NCBI RefSeq assembly: GCF_004364165.1
Contig: NZ_SOAY01000011.1
Location: 558,001-622,000, forward strand
Length of the DNA stretch: 64,000 bases
Reading direction: 5' to 3'
DNA from: Maribacter spongiicola
GTDB taxonomy: Bacteria > Bacteroidota > Bacteroidia > Flavobacteriales > Flavobacteriaceae
Shown: positions 42,672 through 52,252 of the stretch, one piece after another
Layout: every line of letters begins with the position of its first letter
How positions within the stretch are numbered: the stretch's first letter is position 1
Notes under the pieces: generated by a model
Database searches by the model: none
What the model was told of the DNA's origin: nothing
Seen by the model: only the letters and a program-made list of their open reading frames with translations
Program-made: the position numbers and the translations under genes

Positions 42672-43487
42672 ATGGATAAGTTACCTAAGATTGCGTTACC
42701 CGCAATATTTATTTTTATTGTAATAATTATTGCAATTTCAAAATCAACAGTTACAATAGACTCTGGTCAAGCAGGTGTTTTGTACAAAACTTTTGGTGGT
42801 GGTGTTGTAACCGATGAGCCACCTATGGGTGAAGGGTTTCATTTAGTAGCACCTTGGAACAGGGTTACTGTTTATGAAGTACGTCAACAAGAGGTTCTTG
42901 AAAAAATGAATGTACTTTCTAGTAATGGTCTTGATATTAAATTGGAGGCTTCTGCTTGGTTTGAGCCAATTAGAAATGATTTAGGAAAGTTACATCAAGA
43001 AAAAGGTGAAGATTATATTTCTAGAGTTCTTTTACCAACCATACGTTCTGCTGCACGTTCAGTAGTTGGTCGTTATACGCCAGAGCAATTGTATTCAAGT
43101 AAAAGAGATGCTATTCAGCAAGAAATATTCGATGAGACTCAAAAAATAGTTTCTGGTCAATATATTCAATTGAACGAGATTTTAGTAAGAGATGTTACCT
43201 TGCCACCTACAATTAAAGATGCTATCGAGAGAAAGTTAAAGCAAGAGCAAGAGTCCTTAGAATATGAATTTAGACTAGTTACCGCTAAGAAAGAAGCTGA
43301 AAAAGTAACTATCGAAGCACAAGGTAAGGCAGATGCGAACAGAATTTTAAGTGCTTCTTTAACAGATAAAATTCTTCAAGATAAAGGTATCGATGCTACA
43401 TTGAAATTGTCTGAATCGCCTAACTCTAAAGTAATTGTAGTTGGCGGCGGAGATTCTGGGTTACCTTTAATTTTAGGTAATAACTAA
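42672..43487 (+). CDS. Prohibitin/SPFH-family protein
   Basis: 271 residues: N-terminal signal anchor (about 6-23, ALPAIFIFIVIIIAISKS), SPFH/Band 7 domain (about 25-195) and a C-terminal coiled coil (QEQESLEYEFRLVTAKKEAE). Prohibitins form large membrane ring assemblies and often modulate proteases; the partner is not evident here. Last gene before the histidine operon. Confidence 0.9.
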   Translation: MDKLPKIALPAIFIFIVIIIAISKSTVTIDSGQAGVLYKTFGGGVVTDEPPMGEGFHLVAPWNRVTVYEVRQQEVLEKMNVLSSNGLDIKLEASAWFEPIRNDLGKLHQEKGEDYISRVLLPTIRSAARSVVGRYTPEQLYSSKRDAIQQEIFDETQKIVSGQYIQLNEILVRDVTLPPTIKDAIERKLKQEQESLEYEFRLVTAKKEAEKVTIEAQGKADANRILSASLTDKILQDKGIDATLKLSESPNSKVIVVGGGDSGLPLILGNN

Positions 43488-43566
43488 AACACGTAGATGA
43501 TTATTTTTGTTTCATTTTAAACTTTTGTTTTGTGAAATGGAAAATACCTTTTACTTTTACAGTATT

Positions 43567-43620
43567 ATGAAAAACAGAACTACACATCATCATTTCCATA
43601 TTCACGCTCAGGCGAGGTAG
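43567..43620 (+). CDS. hisL: Histidine operon leader peptide, 17 aa
   Basis: MKNRTTHHHFHIHAQAR: five of 17 residues are His, in the stretch HHHFHIH. It lies 102 bp upstream of hisG and 29 bp upstream of a perfect 13-bp terminator hairpin. This is the classical layout of a translational attenuator: a ribosome that lacks charged His-tRNA stalls in the His run and changes folding of the RNA ahead. The start codon is ATG; a short AT-rich upstream region offers TACCTTTT and TACTTTTA as weak promoter boxes. The leader is too short for automated callers. The name hisL is by analogy. Confidence 0.85.
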   Translation: MKNRTTHHHFHIHAQAR

Positions 43621-43649
43621 GAATGTATTGTAGTAGTACAACATATTTA

Positions 43650-43679
43650 AAAACCCGTTTGAGCAATCAAACGGGTTTT
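43650..43679 (+). terminator. Attenuator terminator upstream of hisG
   Basis: AAAACCCGTTTGA (43650-43662) and TCAAACGGGTTTT (43667-43679) form a perfect 13-bp stem capped by a GCAA tetraloop, then GTATTT. It separates the leader peptide from hisG. GCAATCAAA (43663-43671) can instead pair with TTTGATTGC (43694-43702), an alternative 9-bp helix that would break the terminator. The antiterminator formed on ribosome stalling is not obvious by eye. Confidence 0.85.
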
Positions 43680-43721
43680 GTATTTAAATCTCTTTTGATT
43701 GCCAAGCATTAAAAAAAGAAA

Positions 43722-44579
43722 ATGACTAAAATTAGAATTGCTATTCAGAAATCGGGAAGACTTAATGAGGAATCCCTACAAATTTTAAAAGACTGCGGAA
43801 TTTCCATTGATAATGGTAAAGACCAGTTAAAAGCTTCTTCAAGAAACTTCCCTATTGAAGTTTTTTATTTAAGAAACGGAGATATTCCTCAGTATCTAAG
43901 AGACGGAGTGGTTGATATAGCTATTATCGGCGAAAATGTATTAGTAGAGAAAGGTGAAGATATTATCATTGCAGAGAAACTAGGCTTTTCAAAATGTAAA
44001 GTTTCTTTAGCGGTTCCTAAGTCGGTGAAGTATAATTCGGTTAAAGATTTTGAGGGTAAGCGTATTGCAACTTCATACCCGAATACTGTATTGAACTACT
44101 TAAAAGAAAAAGGCGTGAAAGCCGATTTACACATCATTAGTGGTTCTGTTGAAATTGCACCGAATATTGGGTTGGCAGATGCTATTTGCGATATTGTTTC
44201 GAGTGGCAGTACCTTATTTAAAAACAACTTAAAAGAGGTTGAAGTAATGTTGACAAGTGAGGCGGTTTTAGCAGTGTCTCCCAAAATAAATGAAGCGAGA
44301 AAAGAACTTCTAGAAAAGTTACAGTTTAGAATTCAGTCGGTTTTAAGAGCTAGAGGTTCTAAATATGTTTTATTGAATGCACCTAATGACAAATTAGACG
44401 GTATTCTAAAGCTTTTGCCAGGAATGAGGAGTCCGACAGTTTTACCTTTGGCAGATGAAGGTTGGAGCTCGGTACACACTGTTATCAACAAAGACAAATT
44501 TTGGGAGGTAATCGACGAGTTAAAGAAAGCCGGAGCAGAAGGTATTCTTGTTTGCCCAATTGAGAAAATGGTATTGTAA
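43722..44579 (+). CDS. hisG: ATP phosphoribosyltransferase, long form
   Basis: 285 residues: two periplasmic-binding-like domains (KIRIAIQKSGRLNEESLQIL at the N-terminus; the PRPP loop DAICDIVSSGSTLFKNNL at about 152-169) and a C-terminal PII-like regulatory domain (about 215-285), so it is the long, self-sufficient form inhibited by histidine rather than one needing HisZ. First committed step of histidine synthesis; the first structural gene of the operon. Confidence 0.95.
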   Translation: MTKIRIAIQKSGRLNEESLQILKDCGISIDNGKDQLKASSRNFPIEVFYLRNGDIPQYLRDGVVDIAIIGENVLVEKGEDIIIAEKLGFSKCKVSLAVPKSVKYNSVKDFEGKRIATSYPNTVLNYLKEKGVKADLHIISGSVEIAPNIGLADAICDIVSSGSTLFKNNLKEVEVMLTSEAVLAVSPKINEARKELLEKLQFRIQSVLRARGSKYVLLNAPNDKLDGILKLLPGMRSPTVLPLADEGWSSVHTVINKDKFWEVIDELKKAGAEGILVCPIEKMVL

Positions 44580-44675: not shown

Positions 44676-45959
44676 ATGAATAAAATATATAATCCCAAAA
44701 GGCAAGATTGGAAAGACGTTCTTATGCGTCCGACCCAAACTGTTGCCGATATTGAAGGATTGGTCAACACTATTTTTGAGGAAGTAAAGCTTGGCGGTGA
44801 TCGAATCTTAAAAAAGTATACCGAGCAATTTGACAAGGTGAACTTAGAGAATCTTTTGGTTTCAGAAGATGAAATTAAAGAAGCCAAAGCATTGGTTTCA
44901 GAAGATCTAAAAGCTGCTATTCAATTAGCGAAATCGAATATAGAAGTATTTCATACTGCTCAGAAAACGGGTAGGGTTGAAGTGGAAACCACAGCGGGAG
45001 TTTCTTGTTGGCAAGAAAAAAGACCTATTCAGAAAGTGGGACTTTATATTCCTGGCGGAACGGCTCCTTTGTTTTCTACTATCTTAATGTTAGCGGTACC
45101 AGCAACTATTGCAGGTTGTAATGAAATTGTTTTATGCTCTCCTCCGGATAAGGCAGGAAAGCTGAATCCTGCTATTTTATATACGGCAGATTTATGCGGA
45201 GTAACCAAAATTATAAAAGTAGGGGGAATTCAAGCGATTGCCGGAATGACTTTTGGAACAGAAACCATACCACAGGTGTATAAAGTTTTCGGACCAGGAA
45301 ATCAATATGTAACCGTAGCAAAGCAAATTGCAACAAAACACGGAGTTGCAATAGATATGCCTGCGGGTCCTTCAGAATTATTGGTGGTAGCTGATGATTC
45401 TGCGAATGCTGCTTTTGTCGCTTCAGATTTATTGAGTCAGGCAGAACACGGTGTTGACAGTCAGGTGATTTTGGTTTCTACATCTAAAGAAATGATTGAT
45501 GCGGTAGAGAAGGAAGTAGCTCTGCAATTAGAAGATTTACCGCGTAAAGAAATCGCCAGACAAGCAATTGCAAATAGTAAATTGATTTACGTTAATAATG
45601 ATCAAGATGCTATTGATTTAATAAATGAATACGGACCAGAGCACTACATTGTTTGTGTAGAAAATGAAGATTTCTATATTGATAATACGCTGAATGCTGG
45701 TTCTGTTTTTATAGGTAATTACACTCCAGAAAGTGCTGGTGATTATGCTTCTGGTACCAATCATACCTTGCCAACAAATGGATATGCTAAGCAATATAGC
45801 GGTGTAAATTTGGATAGTTTTATGAAAAGCATGACTTTTCAGAAAATAACAAAAGAGGGTATTCAAACCATTGGTAATGCAATTGAACTGATGGCGGAGG
45901 CTGAAGGATTAGAAGCTCATAAAAATGCAGTTACTTTAAGATTACATAGTTTAAAATAA
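44676..45959 (+). CDS. hisD: Histidinol dehydrogenase
   Basis: 427 residues, full length. KVGLYIPGGTAPLFSTILML (about 125-144), FGPGNQYVTVAKQIA, DMPAGPSELLVVADD, LSQAEHGVDSQVIL with zinc-ligand His, and EHYIVCVEN near the catalytic region. Two successive NAD-dependent oxidations of histidinol to histidine, the last step of the pathway. Confidence 0.96.
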   Translation: MNKIYNPKRQDWKDVLMRPTQTVADIEGLVNTIFEEVKLGGDRILKKYTEQFDKVNLENLLVSEDEIKEAKALVSEDLKAAIQLAKSNIEVFHTAQKTGRVEVETTAGVSCWQEKRPIQKVGLYIPGGTAPLFSTILMLAVPATIAGCNEIVLCSPPDKAGKLNPAILYTADLCGVTKIIKVGGIQAIAGMTFGTETIPQVYKVFGPGNQYVTVAKQIATKHGVAIDMPAGPSELLVVADDSANAAFVASDLLSQAEHGVDSQVILVSTSKEMIDAVEKEVALQLEDLPRKEIARQAIANSKLIYVNNDQDAIDLINEYGPEHYIVCVENEDFYIDNTLNAGSVFIGNYTPESAGDYASGTNHTLPTNGYAKQYSGVNLDSFMKSMTFQKITKEGIQTIGNAIELMAEAEGLEAHKNAVTLRLHSLK

Positions 45960-45986
45960 TGTCATTTAGGCTACGCTCAATGACCA
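45960..45986 (+). repeat. Copy of the GTCA...GAGCG repeat after hisD
   Basis: GTCATTTAGGCTACGCTCAA followed by TGACC; ends GTCATT and AATGAC are inverted. Read on minus it contains GTCATTGAGCGTAGCC, related to copies at 49859-49884 and 51479-51588. It begins immediately after the hisD stop. Confidence 0.55.
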
Positions 45987-46002
45987 ACACCATATTGAAC
46001 TA

Positions 46003-47049
46003 ATGAGTTTCAACTTAGATAAAATAACACGAGAAAACGTAAAGGGCTTGAGTCCGTATTCTTCTGCACGAGACGAATACGTTTCAGATGGTTCTACCAT
46101 GGTTTTCTTAGATGCAAATGAGAATCCGTTTGAAAACGGAGTCAATCGGTATCCTGATCCTCAACAAAGAGGCTTGAAAGCGATATTGGCTGAACAGAAG
46201 GGTATAAAGGAAGAAAATATACTTTTAGGTAATGGTAGCGATGAAGTTTTAGATTTGTTGTTCAGAGCTTTCTGTGAGCCTAAACAAGATAATATCATTA
46301 CACTACCACCTACATACGGAATGTATAAGGTACTTTCTGGTATCAATCTAGTCGAAAATAGAGAAGTGCTATTAACGCATGAATTTCAGCCAAATGTTGA
46401 AGAAATCCTAAAAACGATTGATAGCAACACGAAACTATTATTTATCTGCTCACCAAATAATCCTACAGGTAATAGTTTTTCAACTAAGGTTATAGAAGAA
46501 CTTTTAAAGTCCTTCGACGGATTAGTAGTAATTGATGAGGCATATATTGATTTTTCGTCTGAAGAGAGCTGGACATCAAAACTGGCTGAGTTTCCGAATC
46601 TGATTATCACGCAAACTTTATCAAAGGCTTATGGTATGGCGGGTATACGATTGGGTATCTGTATTGCATCCGCAGAAATTATTGCTGTAATAAATAAGAT
46701 TAAACCTCCGTATAATGTAAATCAACTTACGCAAGAGAAAGCTTCTTCTCGTGTTTTGGATATAGATGCTGTTAAGAACGAGGTGAATCAGATTTTAGCG
46801 GAGCGAGCAAAATTAGAAGAGGCTTTAAAAACAGTTTCTTTTGTTGAAAATATTTACCCTACCGATGCAAACTTTATTTTGGCAAAGGTAGATGATGCTA
46901 CACTTAGGTATAATCAATTATTAGCTAAAGGGGTTGTGGTACGGAATCGAACAACACAGCCATTATGTGCAAATACACTGAGATTTACAGTAGGTACGTC
47001 TAAAGAAAACAATAGTGTAATTACTGCTTTAAAAGAATTATCCAACTAA
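46003..47049 (+). CDS. hisC: Histidinol-phosphate aminotransferase
   Basis: 348 residues, PLP class I/II aminotransferase. [20 protein letters not shown] (about 33-52), [20 protein letters not shown], and PLP Lys in [16 protein letters not shown]. Converts imidazole acetol phosphate to histidinol phosphate. One base separates it from hisB. Confidence 0.95.
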
Positions 47050-47050
47050 T

Positions 47051-48193
47051 ATGGAAAATAAAAAAAGAGTACTATTTATAGACCGAGATGGTACTATAAT
47101 AAAAGAAACAGTTGATGAGCAGATAGATGCTTTTGAAAAAATGATTTTCTATCCAAAGTCATTTACTTTTCTGGGTAAAATTGCAAAAGAATTGGATTAT
47201 GAATTGGTGATGATTACCAACCAAGATGGTTTGGGTACAGATGTATTCCCAGAAGATACCTTTTGGCCAGTTCATAATTTCATTCTTAAATCCTTTGAAA
47301 ATGAGGGGGTTGTTTTTGATAAAGTTTTTTTAGATAGAACTTTTCCACATGAAAATGCCAATACTAGAAAACCTGGCACTGGCTTATTGACCGAGTATTT
47401 TTCTGATGATTATGATCTTGAGAATTCCTTTGTAATTGGTGACCGATTAACCGATATGGAATTGGCAAAAAACTTAGGTTCTAAAGGTATATTTATTAAT
47501 GATGAAACCAATTTAGGCACAGGAGAAATTACAGTAAAACGTGATGAATTAGATAGCCATATTGCTATTGAAAGTAACGATTGGGAGAAGATTTATGAGT
47601 TCTTGAAACTGAATGATAGAACTGCAGAAATTCATAGGAAGACCAATGAAACGGATATAGCTATAAAACTAAACCTAGATGGTACGGGTAAGAGTGATAT
47701 AAAAACCGGATTGGCATTTTTTGATCATATGCTAGATCAATTGGCTCGTCATGGGCAAATGGATTTAATGATTAAAGTTGATGGTGATTTAGAAGTTGAT
47801 GAGCACCATACTATCGAAGATACTGGTATTGCTCTTGGTGAGGTATTTCATATGGCTTTAGGAAATAAACTAGGTATTGAACGATACGGGTTCTGTTTAC
47901 CAATGGATGATTGTCTAGCACAATCTGCGATAGATTTTGGCGGCAGAAACTGGTTAGTATGGGATGCAGACTTTAAACGTGAAATGGTGGGTGATATGCC
48001 TACGGAGATGTTTCATCATTTCTTTAAATCGTTCACTGATGGAGCAAAAGCAAACCTGAATATAAAGGCAGAAGGCACCAACGAACATCATAAGATTGAA
48101 GCCATTTTTAAAGCTTTTGCAAAAAGTATTAAAATGTCAGTAAAGAGAGATGTAGAGAAGATGGTGTTACCAAGTACGAAAGGAGTCCTTTAA
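47051..48193 (+). CDS. hisB: Bifunctional histidinol-phosphatase / imidazoleglycerol-phosphate dehydratase
   Basis: 380 residues. N-terminal HAD phosphatase (about 1-165) with nucleophile motif [11 protein letters not shown] and [15 protein letters not shown]-terminal IGPD domain (about 185-380) with [32 protein letters not shown] and [12 protein letters not shown]. Carries out the seventh (dehydratase) and ninth (phosphatase) steps of the pathway. The fusion is known from enterobacteria and Bacteroidota. Confidence 0.96.
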
Positions 48194-48196
48194 AAA

Positions 48197-48272
48197 TAGT
48201 ACTAAGTATTAAGTACAAAGTATTGAGTCTTTTTAAGATTTGCTTTGTACTTAATACTAAGTACTTAATACT
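48197..48272. repeat. Palindromic repeat between hisB and hisH
   Basis: A 24-nt arm (48197-48220) pairs with 48243-48266 at 22 of 24 positions. The 12-mer GTACTTAATACT occurs at 48247 and 48261 and its complement at 48205; the same 12-mer occurs at 50631, before hisF. It fills the hisB-hisH gap. Confidence 0.7.
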
Positions 48273-48279
48273 AGTTTTA

Positions 48280-48861
48280 ATGAAAATTGTAATTATAAAT
48301 TACGGAGCAGGAAATATTCAGAGTATCAAATTTGCTATAAAACGCTTGGGTTACGAAGCGGTTTTAAGTAATGATGTTTCTGAAATACAACATGCGGATA
48401 AAGTGATATTCCCAGGGGTTGGTGAGGCGAGTAGCGCCATGCACAAACTGCGTGATAGCGGATTGGATAAACTGATTCCAAACTTAAAGCAACCTGTTTT
48501 AGGTATTTGCTTAGGTATGCAATTAATGTGTCATTCATCTGAAGAGGGAAATACAACAGGACTCGGAATCTTTGATGTTGATGTTGTCAAGTTTGATAAC
48601 ACAGTCAAAGTTCCTCAAATTGGGTGGAATCAGATTACGAATCTGAAATCCGAATTATTTAAAGGTGTTGAGGAAAAAGAACATATTTATTTAGTACATA
48701 GTTTTTATGCGCCATTGTGCTCTGAAACAATTGCTGAATGTACTTATGGTTTAGATTACAGTGCTGCATTGAAAATGGATAATTTTTACGGTACTCAGTT
48801 TCACCCAGAGAAATCTAGTGATGTGGGAGAGAAGATATTAGAGAATTTTTTAAAGATGTAA
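48280..48861 (+). CDS. hisH: Imidazole glycerol phosphate synthase, glutaminase subunit
   Basis: 193 residues from the ATG at 48280 (MKIVIINYGAGNIQSIKFAI); an upstream in-frame extension would run through the palindromic repeat and is rejected. Class I glutamine amidotransferase: nucleophile Cys in GICLGMQLM, and the His/Glu pair in QFHPEKS. Supplies ammonia to HisF. Its stop overlaps the start of the GNAT gene by one base. Confidence 0.95.
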   Translation: MKIVIINYGAGNIQSIKFAIKRLGYEAVLSNDVSEIQHADKVIFPGVGEASSAMHKLRDSGLDKLIPNLKQPVLGICLGMQLMCHSSEEGNTTGLGIFDVDVVKFDNTVKVPQIGWNQITNLKSELFKGVEEKEHIYLVHSFYAPLCSETIAECTYGLDYSAALKMDNFYGTQFHPEKSSDVGEKILENFLKM

Positions 48862-49283
48862 TGAAGAAAGATTACTTTATTTCAAAGGATAAAAGTTTAT
48901 TGAATGTTGAAGAAATTCAAAAATTCATAGCAACTTCTTATTGGGGTAATGGTCGAACTTTAGATGAAGTAAAATTAACTATTGAGAATTCATATTGTTT
49001 TGGAATATATACACCTGATAATAAACAAATTGGATTTGCTAGAATAGTTACCGATTATATTTACTTCGGATATTTCATGGACGTGATTATTCTAGATAAA
49101 TTTCAAGGTCAGGGTTATGGTAAGATTTTGGTTCATGCAATATTAGAAGATACTACCATCAAGAAACTTAAAACATTAGCATTAAAAACAAAGGATGCGC
49201 ATCATTTATATGAGCGATACGGATTTGACAAAATAGGAGATTCACCTTTGTGGATGTCCATTGATAGACAAATATTACAATAG
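48861..49283 (+). CDS. GNAT-family N-acetyltransferase inside the his operon
   Basis: 140 residues. GNAT fold with acetyl-CoA loop LDKFQGQGYGKILVHAIL (about 73-90) and a C-terminal HHLYERYGFDKIGD (about 113-126). It overlaps hisH by one base (TAATG) and precedes hisA by 3 bp, so it is translationally embedded in the operon. Not a known step of histidine synthesis; substrate unknown. Could act on a small amine or be a passenger. Confidence 0.85.
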   Translation: MKKDYFISKDKSLLNVEEIQKFIATSYWGNGRTLDEVKLTIENSYCFGIYTPDNKQIGFARIVTDYIYFGYFMDVIILDKFQGQGYGKILVHAILEDTTIKKLKTLALKTKDAHHLYERYGFDKIGDSPLWMSIDRQILQ

Positions 49284-49286
49284 ACA

Positions 49287-50051
49287 ATGAGAATAATACC
49301 TGCTATAGATATCATAGACGGCAAATGTGTTCGCCTTTCAAAAGGTGATTACGACACCAAGAAAATATATAATGAGAATCCGTTGGAGGTTGCGAAGGAG
49401 TTTGAAGCTCACGGAATTGAATATTTACATCTGGTTGATTTAGATGGTGCAAAGTCAAAGCATATTGTAAATCATAAAGTATTGGAGCAAATTGCATCTC
49501 AAACTGGTTTACGAATTGATTTCGGAGGGGGATTAAAAACTGATGATGATTTGCGTATTGCTTTTGAAAGTGGTGCCAAGCAAATTACTGGCGGAAGTAT
49601 TGCCGTAAAAGACCCTGATACTTTCCTTGGTTGGATAGAAAAACATGGTGCTGATAAGATAATTTTAGGAGCAGATGCTATGGATGAAAAAGTAGCGGTT
49701 TCTGGTTGGTTAGAGGAATCTAAAGAGGAACTCATTCCTTTTATACAATCGTATCAACAAAAAGGAATTCAATATGTAATTTGTACCGATATCAGTAAAG
49801 ATGGTATGCTAGAAGGTCCGTCGTTTGATTTATACAAAAAGATAATTGCCCAAACTGATGTCAGTCTGAGCGCAGTCGAAGACCAATCTATGTTACAAAT
49901 AAAACTAATCGCCAGTGGCGGAATATCAAGTTTTGATGAATTACCTAAATTAGCAGAAATGGGTTGTGAAGGTACAATCATTGGTAAGGCGATTTATGAA
50001 AATAGAATTAGTCTTAAACAACTGGAAACTTATATTTTAAGCAATGGATAA
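49287..50051 (+). CDS. hisA: Phosphoribosylformimino-5-aminoimidazole carboxamide ribotide isomerase with in-frame repeat
   Basis: 254 residues, TIM barrel. Catalytic Asp8 ([14 protein letters not shown]) and Asp130 ([13 protein letters not shown]), phosphate motifs [11 protein letters not shown] and [11 protein letters not shown]. Residues about 191-203 ([13 protein letters not shown]) are not usual HisA sequence. They are encoded by a copy of the TGTCA..CTGAGCGCAGTCGAAG repeat (49859-49884) and lie between barrel helix 6 and strand 7, just before LIASGG. The insert is in frame and no catalytic residue is lost, so activity is likely. About 12 residues longer than typical. Confidence 0.93.
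49859..49884 (+). repeat. Repeat copy inside hisA
   Basis: TGTCAGTCTGAGCGCAGTCG followed by AAGACC; differs at about three positions from the intergenic copy at 51524-51548. Lies wholly within the hisA reading frame. Confidence 0.75.
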
Positions 50052-50559
50052 GGAAGAACGCTTAGTTGAAGAGATTGTTGAAAATGCGATGTATCGTATG
50101 GACGAAAGTACGCGCATGATAAAGAAAAGTCTTGCTGAAATTTCAGAAGAAGAAATTTGGCAGAAGCCTAATCCTTCTTTAAACAGTATGGCTAATCTCA
50201 TTTTACACTTATGTGGTAATATGACGCAATATGTCATTTCTTCCATAAGCGAAATTGAAGATAATAGAAATAGAGACGAAGAATTTTCAGTCAATTCTGG
50301 TTTAACGAAAGTGGAGTTGTTACATAAATTAGAAGATACAGTAGACTCGGTAAAACGTGTTATTTTTAATTCCACAACCGATAAGTTGATAAAAGTAAGA
50401 TCAGTACAAGGAATGTCTTTTTCGGGAGTTGGTGCAATTATGCATGCAGTGGAGCACTATTCTTATCATACTGGTCAGATTGCTTTTTATGTGAAGTTGA
50501 TCAAAGAAAAGGATTTGGGATTTTATGACGGAGTGGATTTGAATATTAAAAATGATTAA
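50044..50559 (+). CDS. DinB-family (DUF1572-like) protein inside the his operon
   Basis: 171 residues, four-helix-bundle type. [17 protein letters not shown] (about 53-69) and [20 protein letters not shown] (about 133-152) supply the metal-binding His residues. It overlaps the end of hisA by 8 bp, so it is translationally coupled. No histidine-pathway role is known for the family. Function unknown. Confidence 0.85.
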
Positions 50560-50561
50560 AA

Positions 50562-50642
50562 AGTATCAAGTACAAAGTATTGCTTGATATTATGTGTGAT
50601 ATTTATTGAATACTTAGTGCTATTTAGGTAGTACTTAATACT
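50562..50642. repeat. Palindromic repeat between the DinB gene and hisF
   Basis: AGTATCAAGTAC (50562-50573) and GTACTTAATACT (50631-50642) are complementary at 11 of 12 positions. Same family as the hisB-hisH element. Confidence 0.65.
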
Positions 50643-50650
50643 AAAAAAAT

Positions 50651-51406
50651 ATGCTAGCTAAGAGAATTATACCTTGTTTAGATATCAAAGACGGTAGAAC
50701 CGTAAAAGGTGTCAATTTCGTTGACTTACGTGATGCAGGCGATCCTGTTGAACTGGCTGAAATTTATAGTCGAGAAGGTGCCGATGAATTGGTTTTCCTA
50801 GATATTTCAGCAACGGAACAAAAAAGAAAAACTTTAGCAGATTTGGTATATCGTGTAGCCGAAAAAGTAAATATTCCGTTTACTGTTGGTGGCGGAATTT
50901 CATCTGTTGAAGATGTTGATGTTTTGCTACATAACGGTGCAGATAAGGTTTCTATTAATTCCTCTGCAGTTAAGAATCCGCAATTGATTAATGATTTGGT
51001 TGCTAAATTTGGGTCGCAGTGTATTGTTGTAGCCATAGATGCTAAACAGATTGATGGCGAGTGGATTGTTCATTTGGTTGGTGGTAAAGTACCGACCGAT
51101 AGAAAACTATTTGAATGGGCAAAAGAAGTAGAAGAACGCGGAGCAGGAGAAATTCTATTTACCTCAATGGATAATGATGGTACTAAAGACGGATTCGCAA
51201 ATGAAGCATTGGCAAAATTGTCTACGGAGTTAAATATTCCGATAATTGCTTCTGGAGGTGCAGGTAATAAACAGCATTTTACTGATACCTTTGTTGAAGG
51301 TAAAGCAGATGCGGCATTAGCAGCAAGTGTTTTTCACTTTAAAGAAATAGGCATTCAAGAGTTGAAACTTGAGCTGCAGGAGAACGGGATTCCGGTTAGG
51401 GTTTAG
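50651..51406 (+). CDS. hisF: Imidazole glycerol phosphate synthase, cyclase subunit
   Basis: 251 residues, TIM barrel. [20 protein letters not shown] at the N-terminus with catalytic Asp11, [26 protein letters not shown] with Asp130 region, and [24 protein letters not shown]. With HisH forms imidazole glycerol phosphate and AICAR. Confidence 0.96.
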
Positions 51407-51419
51407 TTTTCAGTGCTCG

Positions 51420-51458
51420 GTTGGCAGTATCAGTTGGCAGTATGAGTTGGCAGTCGCA
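51420..51458 (+). repeat. 13-bp tandem repeat, three copies
   Basis: GTTGGCAGTATCA, GTTGGCAGTATGA and GTTGGCAGTCGCA follow head to tail, 13 bp after the hisF stop, then a degenerate GTGTTCAG. Confidence 0.8.
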
Positions 51459-51478
51459 GTGTTCAGTTTTGATTATTG

Positions 51479-51502
51479 CACTTCGGCTACGCTCAGTGAC
51501 CG
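51479..51502 (-). repeat. Repeat copy, inverted, in the hisF-hisIE gap
   Basis: CACTTCGGCTACGCTCAGTG then ACCG. On minus it reads GGTCACTGAGCGTAGCCGAA, the same family as the hisA insert and in opposite orientation to the next copy. Confidence 0.65.
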
Positions 51503-51523
51503 TATTAATATTATAAAATGCAA

Positions 51524-51548
51524 TGTCATTCTGAGCGCAGTCGAAGGC
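51524..51548 (+). repeat. Repeat copy closest to the hisA insert
   Basis: TGTCATTCTGAGCGCAGTCG followed by AAGGC. With the inverted copy at 51479-51502 it can form a hairpin in the hisF-hisIE gap. Confidence 0.75.
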
Positions 51549-51565
51549 TTGGGAACATCTATTTC

Positions 51566-51588
51566 ACATCGGCGACAATCAGTGACCG
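51566..51588 (-). repeat. Degenerate repeat copy before hisIE
   Basis: CACATCGGCGACAATCAGTG then ACC; resembles the copy at 51479-51502 with several changes. Confidence 0.45.
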
Positions 51589-51643
51589 ATTTTAAAATTG
51601 AAGGTTTAAAATAGAATAAAAATAAAATTAGAATACAATACAT

Positions 51644-52252
51644 ATGGAGTTTAATACACCAAATTGGGAGAAAATGAGTGACGGATTAGTACCTGCCATT
51701 ATACAAGATGTTCGTACTAAGAATGTATTGATGCTGGGCTACATGAATGCCGAAGCTTTGAAGAAAACTACTGATAGTGGAAAGGTTACATTTTTTAGTC
51801 GCTCTAAGCAGCGCTTATGGACTAAAGGAGAAGAAAGCGGAAACTTTTTGAATTTAGTTGCTATTAAAAATGACTGTGATAATGATTCTCTTTTAATTAC
51901 AGTGAATCCTGTGGGTCCTACTTGTCATACAGGAACAGATACGTGTTGGAATGAAGAAAACAATTCTCAATTCGGATTCTTTTCTGAGTTAGAAGATACT
52001 ATTAAAGAAAGACGAACTACTGCCGACGATAGTAAATCTTACGTAGCTTCTTTGTTTAAAAAAGGTATTAATAAAATCGCACAAAAAGTAGGGGAGGAAG
52101 CTGTAGAAACGGTTATAGAGGCAATGGATGATAATGATGACTTATTCTTGTACGAGAGTGCAGATTTACTTTTTCATTACTTAATGCTATTACAAGCAAA
52201 AGGTTTTACACTTAAAGATATTGAAGCAGAACTAATGAATAGAAAGAAGTAG
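51644..52252 (+). CDS. hisIE: Bifunctional phosphoribosyl-AMP cyclohydrolase / phosphoribosyl-ATP diphosphatase
   Basis: 202 residues. HisI domain (about 1-105) with VLMLGYMNAEALKKT and the metal site PTCHTGTDTCW; HisE domain (about 112-200) with KKGINKIAQKVGEEAVETVI (about 142-161). Second and third steps of the pathway. Last gene of the operon, 237 bp from hisF because of the repeats between them. Confidence 0.96.
   Translation: MEFNTPNWEKMSDGLVPAIIQDVRTKNVLMLGYMNAEALKKTTDSGKVTFFSRSKQRLWTKGEESGNFLNLVAIKNDCDNDSLLITVNPVGPTCHTGTDTCWNEENNSQFGFFSELEDTIKERRTTADDSKSYVASLFKKGINKIAQKVGEEAVETVIEAMDDNDDLFLYESADLLFHYLMLLQAKGFTLKDIEAELMNRKK

What the first reader, a model, noticed from the sequence alone, without database searches (positions are those of the whole stretch)
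43567..43702. His-rich leader peptide and attenuator ahead of the flavobacterial his operon
Seen: a 17-codon frame with five His codons (HHHFHIH), then a perfect 13-bp hairpin with GCAA loop, then hisG. Known: ribosome-mediated attenuation of his operons is well described in Proteobacteria, less so in Bacteroidota, where Shine-Dalgarno use is weak. Inference: histidine starvation stalls a ribosome here and prevents the terminator. The antiterminator is not the usual obvious one; a 9-bp alternative helix (43663-43671 with 43694-43702) is downstream of the terminator stem rather than upstream, which would be an unusual arrangement.
Basis: partly seen in the sequence, partly recalled or inferred. 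Interest (0 to 1): 0.75.

Follow-up and report, generated by a model that had tools for sequence, protein, structure and literature searches.

The report
Histidine attenuator of flavobacterial his operon
A short stretch before the histidine-making genes of a marine bacterium appears to sense histidine shortage by stalling a ribosome on histidine codons, so that RNA polymerase is not stopped early; the same switch is found in its relatives, with one extra RNA arm whose role is unknown.

Summary
In Maribacter a 17-codon frame MKNRTTHHHFHIHAQAR* (43567-43620) and a perfect 13-bp hairpin precede hisG. A His-rich ATG frame precedes hisG in 216 of 221 distinct Flavobacteriaceae regions, against 2 of 1105 shuffles. 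On a sequence-only alignment of 84 relatives, antiterminator and terminator show more double-sided changes than any of 500 shuffles. This fits classical ribosome-mediated attenuation. Guérin et al. 2021 already name a conserved flavobacterial hisG 5' element, without anatomy in the section I read. Transcribed after the U-tract, D cannot decide that termination; perhaps it acts on the read-through mRNA. Equilibrium folding did not support a simple translational switch, and D is not tied to the hisG start in every genus. D's function is open.

The parts
43567..43620 (+). His-rich leader peptide MKNRTTHHHFHIHAQAR* (His codons 43585-43593, 43597-43599, 43603-43605)
   Evidence: 216 of 221 distinct family regions pass the His rule with ATG
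43606..43618 (+). antiterminator 5' arm GCTCAGGCGAGGT (codons AQAR and first base of the stop); A43615 bulged
   Evidence: pairs with 43653-43664, -18.9 kcal/mol; 91.0% of 902 cells paired, 13 double-change cells, 0 of 500 shuffles as high
43621..43648 (+). small hairpin P2 (43621-43632 with 43637-43648), nested inside the antiterminator
   Evidence: MFE of partial transcripts; TGTATTG motif after the stop, 71-89% per position in 219 regions; covariation of P2 not tested
43650..43662 (+). terminator 5' arm (E5); 43653-43664 is also the antiterminator 3' arm
43667..43679 (+). terminator 3' arm (E3), followed by a broken U-rich tail
   Evidence: 10 core pairs, 99.3% of 838 cells paired, 24 double-change cells, 0 of 500 shuffles as high
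43694..43707 (+). downstream arm D, complementary to the inner E5 arm plus terminator loop (and first bases of E3)
   Evidence: the last five bases pair only with A43662 bulged (read by eye)
43722..44579 (+). hisG, first gene of the controlled operon
   Evidence: TIGR00070, frame
44676..52252 (+). rest of the his cluster: hisD, hisC, hisB, hisH, hisA, hisF, hisIE, with two other frames between (48861-49283, 50044-50559)
   Evidence: the two other frames were not family-searched; co-transcription not shown

Best explanation
A ribosome-mediated transcription attenuator. A ribosome follows RNA polymerase through the leader. If His-tRNA is plentiful it reaches the stop codon and covers 43606-43618, so the terminator hairpin 43650-43679 forms and transcription stops before hisG. 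If His-tRNA is scarce it stalls on the HHH run, 12 nt upstream of that arm; the arm stays free, pairs with 43653-43664, and RNA polymerase reads into hisG. Shown by sequence: the leader, both mutually exclusive helices, their covariation, and the usual spacing. Inferred: translation, stalling, termination, and the response to histidine. The terminator 5' arm has a third conserved partner, D (43694-43707), made only in read-through RNA. I think D most likely tunes the fate or translation of mRNAs that have escaped termination; that step is speculative.
For: His-rich ATG frame in 216 of 221 distinct family regions (218 with any of three starts) against 2 of 1105 shuffles, and in 40 of 47 loci from other Bacteroidota (36 with ATG). 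Hairpin with at least 10 pairs and 7 U in an 11-nt tail: 221 of 237 family loci against 10 of 237 shuffled regions (237 of 237 have some hairpin by the looser rule). Antiterminator and terminator covariation on alignment A1. From the end of the His run to the TC of arm 1: 14 nt in 194 of 227 loci where a hand-made motif list found the arm (235 of 237 had a run of two or more His, 8 of these not located). A ribosome is said to cover up to 12 nt beyond a stop codon (PMC4833913, passage). The C-terminal stretch is kept as RNA in other frames: L214 SSEC, L217 and L227 SNEL, L235 SSGEVK. Before E3 is made the MFE is the antiterminator; with the ribosome at the stop only the terminator is left. A covariance model with the antiterminator pairs finds one strong copy in 36 of 36 Maribacter genomes (E 4e-14 or better), overlapping the hisG start in 35 and 64 nt before the hisG match in G028; the ten other hits have E 0.0016-0.095 (the model's training rows include Maribacter). 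D.
Against: No expression data. At equilibrium the terminator beats the antiterminator even with arm 1 free, so antitermination must be kinetic. A ribosome stalled on the fourth or fifth His codon would already cover part of arm 1. The U-tract in Maribacter is interrupted and the simple scan found no terminator. Some outer antiterminator pairs are weak (column pair 30/89 unpaired in 32 of 84), and two of five covariation measures were reached by 25 and 102 of 500 shuffles. The E5 U-to-C change may reflect few events (L166 and a set of deep genera; no tree was built). For D: no state-dependent accessibility in 90 loci; 14 of 164 representatives have no room for it and 53 of 150 do not reach p<=0.05; two of five covariation measures were reached by 126 of 500 shuffles.
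Confidence: 0.92

Rival explanations
1. Dual control: arm D adds a translational checkpoint. In read-through mRNA whose arm 1 is covered, E5 and the loop can pair with D, ending a helix about 16 nt before the hisG start, next to the A-rich site used for initiation in Bacteroidota, and so damp hisG translation when histidine returns.
For: D fits its own terminator better than permuted D does (total 3688 against 2000 permutations, mean 2887, sd 46, max 3074); 12 double-change cells, 0 of 500 shuffles as high. D's 3' end is a median 16 nt from hisG; in the 73 of 79 loci where it is within 24 nt the sd is 2.6 nt, against 5.6 nt from terminator to D (that subset was cut on the distance itself). Structure around the start tunes initiation in Flavobacterium johnsoniae (PMC6847099, passages).
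Against: Over all 79 loci D is not nearer-fixed to hisG than to the terminator (sd 7.7 against 6.3 nt); in 6 loci D is 37-47 nt from hisG. Partition functions show no difference in D or start-site accessibility between the two states (90 loci, Wilcoxon p 0.62 and 0.26), since the terminator hairpin usually wins over E:D.
Confidence: 0.3
2. D is a target in trans: the terminated leader RNA, made mostly when histidine is plentiful, base-pairs with D on full-length his mRNA, in the way of attenuator RNAs that act in trans, such as rnTrpL of Sinorhizobium (recalled).
For: Same complementarity evidence as above; rnTrpL appears in a search listing only (PMC7298713).
Against: E is locked in a hairpin with a 3-5 nt loop in 226 of 237 loci, and D lies within tens of nt of E in cis. 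No trans target outside hisG was sought.
Confidence: 0.12
3. The hairpin is only the terminator of the upstream gene (42672-43487) and the His-rich frame is incidental.
For: The hairpin lies downstream of a same-strand gene.
Against: Leader and hairpin precede hisG throughout the sampled family loci, and the leader's last codons covary with the hairpin.
Confidence: 0.02
4. The His-rich peptide works as a product (for example metal binding) rather than as a ruler for the ribosome.
For: HHH(H) and often QAR are conserved as amino acids.
Against: The C-terminal stretch is kept as RNA in other frames (L214, L217, L227, L235); the spacing from His run to arm 1 is usually the same.
Confidence: 0.03

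Closest known systems
his operon leader of Enterobacteria (Rfam RF00514 His_leader; hisL attenuator)
   Same: His-codon run in a short leader peptide, mutually exclusive antiterminator and terminator ahead of the his operon (enterobacterial anatomy recalled)
   Different: No RF00514 row up to E 5 in 43000-44200. Here the antiterminator strand is inside the last leader codons and pairs directly with the terminator 5' arm, and there is a conserved downstream arm D.
F. psychrophilum hisG 5' element (Guerin et al. 2021, PMC9723704)
   Same: Structured 5' element upstream of hisG, said to be present in other Flavobacteriaceae genera, without Rfam hit, in a text that reports strong clues for leader-peptide attenuation of amino-acid operons (section 19 read)
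   Different: The section gives no leader sequence, antiterminator, covariation or downstream arm; their Table S7 was not seen
Leader-peptide-like short ORFs in 5' UTRs of Bacteroides thetaiotaomicron (PMC7366714, passages)
   Same: Short ORFs described as reminiscent of attenuation leader peptides, same phylum
   Different: No his gene is mentioned in the text searched (histidine 0, hisG 0 occurrences)
His leader peptides of hisZ/hisS in bacilli (Naville and Gautheret 2010, PMC2965389, passages)
   Same: His-run leader peptide with terminator outside Proteobacteria
   Different: Different genes and phylum; the text has no word beginning Bacteroid or Flavobacter
Dual transcription/translation attenuation, such as B. 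subtilis trp with TRAP (recalled)
   Same: One leader can control both termination and the translation of the first gene
   Different: Ligand-bound protein rather than ribosome; only a functional analogy for arm D

Membership tests
Ribosome-mediated transcription attenuator (functional kind) | Short ORF rich in codons for the operon's product amino acid | tested here: met
   (that it is translated was not shown)
Ribosome-mediated transcription attenuator (functional kind) | Intrinsic terminator between the ORF and the first structural gene | tested here: met
   221 of 237 family loci by hairpin and tail rule against 10 of 237 shuffled, covariation; the simple scan did not flag the Maribacter copy; termination not shown
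Ribosome-mediated transcription attenuator (functional kind) | Antiterminator that excludes the terminator and would lie under a ribosome at the stop codon | tested here: met
Ribosome-mediated transcription attenuator (functional kind) | Read-through rises on starvation for that amino acid | not testable with these tools
   needs RNA-seq or a reporter
Rfam RF00514 His_leader | Match to the covariance model | tested here: not met
   no RF00514 row up to E 5 in 43000-44200
T-box (RF00230) | Match to the covariance model | tested here: not met
   no RF00230 row up to E 5 in 43000-44200
F. psychrophilum hisG 5' element (Guerin 2021) | Sequence and structure identity with the published element | not tested
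   section 19 read; supplementary table not read (no look-ups allowed)

The most novel reading that the evidence does not exclude
The his attenuator of Flavobacteriaceae is a three-partner switch: one terminator arm (consensus CCCGUUUGAG) is contested by the leader codons (antiterminator), its own 3' arm (terminator), and a downstream arm before hisG that exists only in read-through RNA and gives a second, post-termination level of control by the same sensing ribosome. The need to suit three partners would explain why this arm is nearly invariant.
Probability: 0.3. Interest if true: 0.7.

Novelty: new variant of a known kind. Interest (0 to 1): 0.5.

Why it matters
It gives a concrete, testable anatomy for amino-acid attenuation in a phylum whose mRNAs lack Shine-Dalgarno sequences, conserved across the sampled family and traceable into other Bacteroidota. 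No Rfam family matched it at a gathering score or at E below 0.3. Arm D is a conserved, covarying element with no assigned role, so simple mutations could show whether one ribosome sensor controls both termination and what happens to the escaped mRNA.

Tried and rejected
Downstream helix as the antiterminator: rejected, because D is transcribed after the U-tract. Simple translational switch by D at equilibrium: not supported. D as a feature of all flavobacterial attenuators: little could be tested. For pheA I gave 8 of 9 loci, 7 had a terminator-like hairpin, 2 had room for D and 0 were significant; in other Bacteroidota with His leaders, of 40 loci 33 had such a hairpin, 29 had room and 2 (L244, L247) were significant. 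Peptide function of the AQAR end: rejected on the frame changes. L10_leader (E 0.31) and, on the minus strand, Trp_leader (E 1.2) rows, both below their gathering scores: taken as look-alikes of the terminator hairpin and not pursued. A pseudoknot between the terminator loop and D: considered, judged sterically limited, not computed. Whether the leader mRNA is leaderless: considered, not resolved. A second similar element in the genome: the strict pattern finds one copy.

Counting notes. One search used a strict motif that failed in 75 of 241 rows, many of them only for a different base near the bulge; its Fisher test (p 0.009) rests on the other 166. One search's D-partner test (T:A 87, T:G 15, C:G 10, C:A 0, one T:T; p 6e-8) chose the register by best helix on loci that were not dereplicated, so it is partly circular; on the sequence-only alignment C:A occurs once (L237). 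In one search the own-D advantage is strong for the loop classes AAA (24.3 against 17.9), ACAA (29.7 against 18.9) and TAAA (30.1 against 19.9) but small for the window's own class CAA (21.5 against 19.6), and within a class own D fits no better than a classmate's D. In one search own D beat other loci's D at p<=0.05 in 32 of 150. The leader chooser favours ATG starts, so '235 of 237 ATG' leans that way.

Full report
What is there. The window lies in a Maribacter genome: one search returns named Maribacter records whose contigs match those of unnamed same-genus relatives (e.g. contig length 89564, L002 and L059). The stretch between an upstream gene (42672-43487) and hisG (43722) holds a 17-codon frame MKNRTTHHHFHIHAQAR* (43567-43620) and a perfect 13-bp hairpin, 43650-43662 with 43667-43679, followed by a broken U-rich tail. 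hisG is followed by hisD, C, B, H, A, F and IE. In Rfam nothing reaches a gathering score here; the best row is L10_leader at E 0.31, and a Trp_leader row (E 1.2) lies on the minus strand.

Is it more than chance? Together these cover all 129 family genomes with hisG, of 149 searched. Some named and unnamed loci are the same DNA; 221 regions are distinct. A His-rich frame passes a fixed rule in 216 of 221 with ATG (218 with ATG, GTG or TTG); with ATG, 2 of 1105 shuffles and 1 of 221 reverse strands pass. The three misses, L045, L096 and L220, have broken or two-residue His runs. In other Bacteroidota, 40 of 47 loci have such a frame (36 with ATG; 1 of 235 shuffles); these are only the best 30 loci of each of two searches, so the most distant hisG genes were not looked at. 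A hairpin of at least 10 pairs with 7 or more U in an 11-nt tail follows in 221 of 237 family loci against 10 of 237 shuffled regions.

The antiterminator. The last leader codons, GCTCAGGCGAGGT (43606-43618), pair with ACCCGTTTGAGC (43653-43664) in 12 pairs with one bulged A, -18.9 kcal/mol. Folding partial transcripts gives the antiterminator, with a small hairpin nested in it, as long as E3 has not been made. With a ribosome at the stop codon only the terminator remains. At equilibrium with E3 present the terminator wins, so the decision must be made during transcription, as in known attenuators. A stall at the first three His codons leaves arm 1 free; a stall at the fourth or fifth would cover part of it (footprint assumed). 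On a MAFFT alignment of 84 relatives less than 80% alike (loci with very long or short regions were left out), the antiterminator forms in 91.0% of 902 cells with 13 double-change cells (shuffle mean 4.9, 0 of 500 as high; slid versions at most 52.5% paired). Two of its five measures were not exceptional (25 and 102 of 500). The terminator core forms in 99.3% of 838 cells with 24 double-change cells, and all five measures exceed every shuffle.

The ruler. From the end of the His run to the TC of arm 1 is 14 nt in 194 of 227 loci where a hand-made list of motifs found the arm. A ribosome is said to cover up to 12 nt beyond a stop codon (PMC4833913, passage), so one waiting on the run would leave the arm free, and one at the stop would cover it. 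In L214, L217, L227 and L235 the reading frame across the arm differs while the RNA motif is kept, so the RNA rather than the peptide end seems to be under selection.

The downstream arm. Own D fits its own terminator better than permuted D (3688 against a mean of 2887, sd 46, maximum 3074 in 2000 permutations). The fit follows the loop sequence for several loop classes, weakly for the window's own. On the sequence-only alignment, where 61 of 84 rows have letters at most D columns, the seven E5:D pairs form in 88.7% of 423 cells with 12 double-change cells (0 of 500), although two of five measures were reached by 126 of 500 shuffles. In the 10 of 84 rows with C in place of U at one E5 column, arm 1 has G in 9 of 9 with a letter, E3 in 10 of 10 and D in 9 of 10 (L237 has A). 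Nine of the ten are genera with HisG 55-67% identical to the window's, the tenth is L166 (75%), so the events may be few; I built no tree. D's 3' end is a median 16 nt before hisG. Where it is within 24 nt (73 of 79) the sd is 2.6 nt, but over all 79 loci it is 7.7 nt, more than the 6.3 nt from terminator to D, because in 6 loci D lies 37-47 nt from hisG. Outside the family only L244 and L247 of 29 testable loci have D at p<=0.01.

What D does. It is made after the U-tract, so it cannot influence that termination event. It could act on read-through mRNA. F. johnsoniae mRNAs lack Shine-Dalgarno sequences, and initiation there is tuned by structure near the start and by A residues upstream (PMC6847099, passages), which D's helix would adjoin. 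But equilibrium folding of 90 loci shows no difference in accessibility between the two leader states. I therefore keep translational gating as a hypothesis, not a result.

Specificity. A covariance model with only the antiterminator pairs finds one strong copy per genome in 36 of 36 Maribacter genomes (E 4e-14 or better). It overlaps the hisG start in 35 and lies 64 nt before the hisG match in G028; ten other hits have E 0.0016-0.095. The training rows include Maribacter, so this tests uniqueness rather than presence.

Prior work. Guerin et al. 2021 (PMC9723704, section 19 read) report strong clues for leader-peptide attenuation in amino-acid operons of F. psychrophilum and name a hisG 5' element present in other Flavobacteriaceae genera without Rfam hit. 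So the existence of a conserved element is not new. A B. thetaiotaomicron transcriptome paper notes short ORFs reminiscent of leader peptides (PMC7366714, passages). I found no description of the hisG antiterminator or of arm D in my searches of the held library, which lacks most subscription papers. Lopatovskaya et al. 2010, a likely precedent by its title, is not held.

Verdict. A known mechanism, well supported by sequence in an under-studied phylum, with one conserved and unexplained extra arm.

Noticed in passing
L300-L308, upstream of prephenate dehydratase genes: By eye, a Phe/Tyr-rich short leader frame lies upstream of the gene in 9 of 9 loci, e.g. MTKQYFWNGFYFYFFFKRGTGLL in the window's own genome (L300); 7 of the 8 loci tested have a terminator-like hairpin after it.
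   Followed up: partly
L293, L294, L298, upstream of ilvD: By eye, Ile/Val-rich short frames (e.g. MKLTNLFIDVVIVIPNQG in the window's own genome, L294) in 3 of 8 ilvD loci, suggesting further attenuators.
   Followed up: no
L164, L184, L193, L209, L212, between D and hisG: Five loci have extra sequence between arm D and hisG; in L184 and L193 it holds, by eye, a small hairpin of its own.
   Followed up: no
L240-L290 without the six family members among them: His-rich leaders before hisG in 40 of 47 loci from other families and classes of the phylum, with differing terminator sequences; D significant in 2 of 29 testable.
   Followed up: partly
window 48861-49283 and 50044-50559: Two frames that I did not family-search sit inside the his cluster, between hisH and hisA and between hisA and hisF.
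   Followed up: no
window 43650-43679, minus strand: The hairpin reads AAAACCCG...CGGGTTTT and could serve as a terminator on either strand.
   Followed up: no
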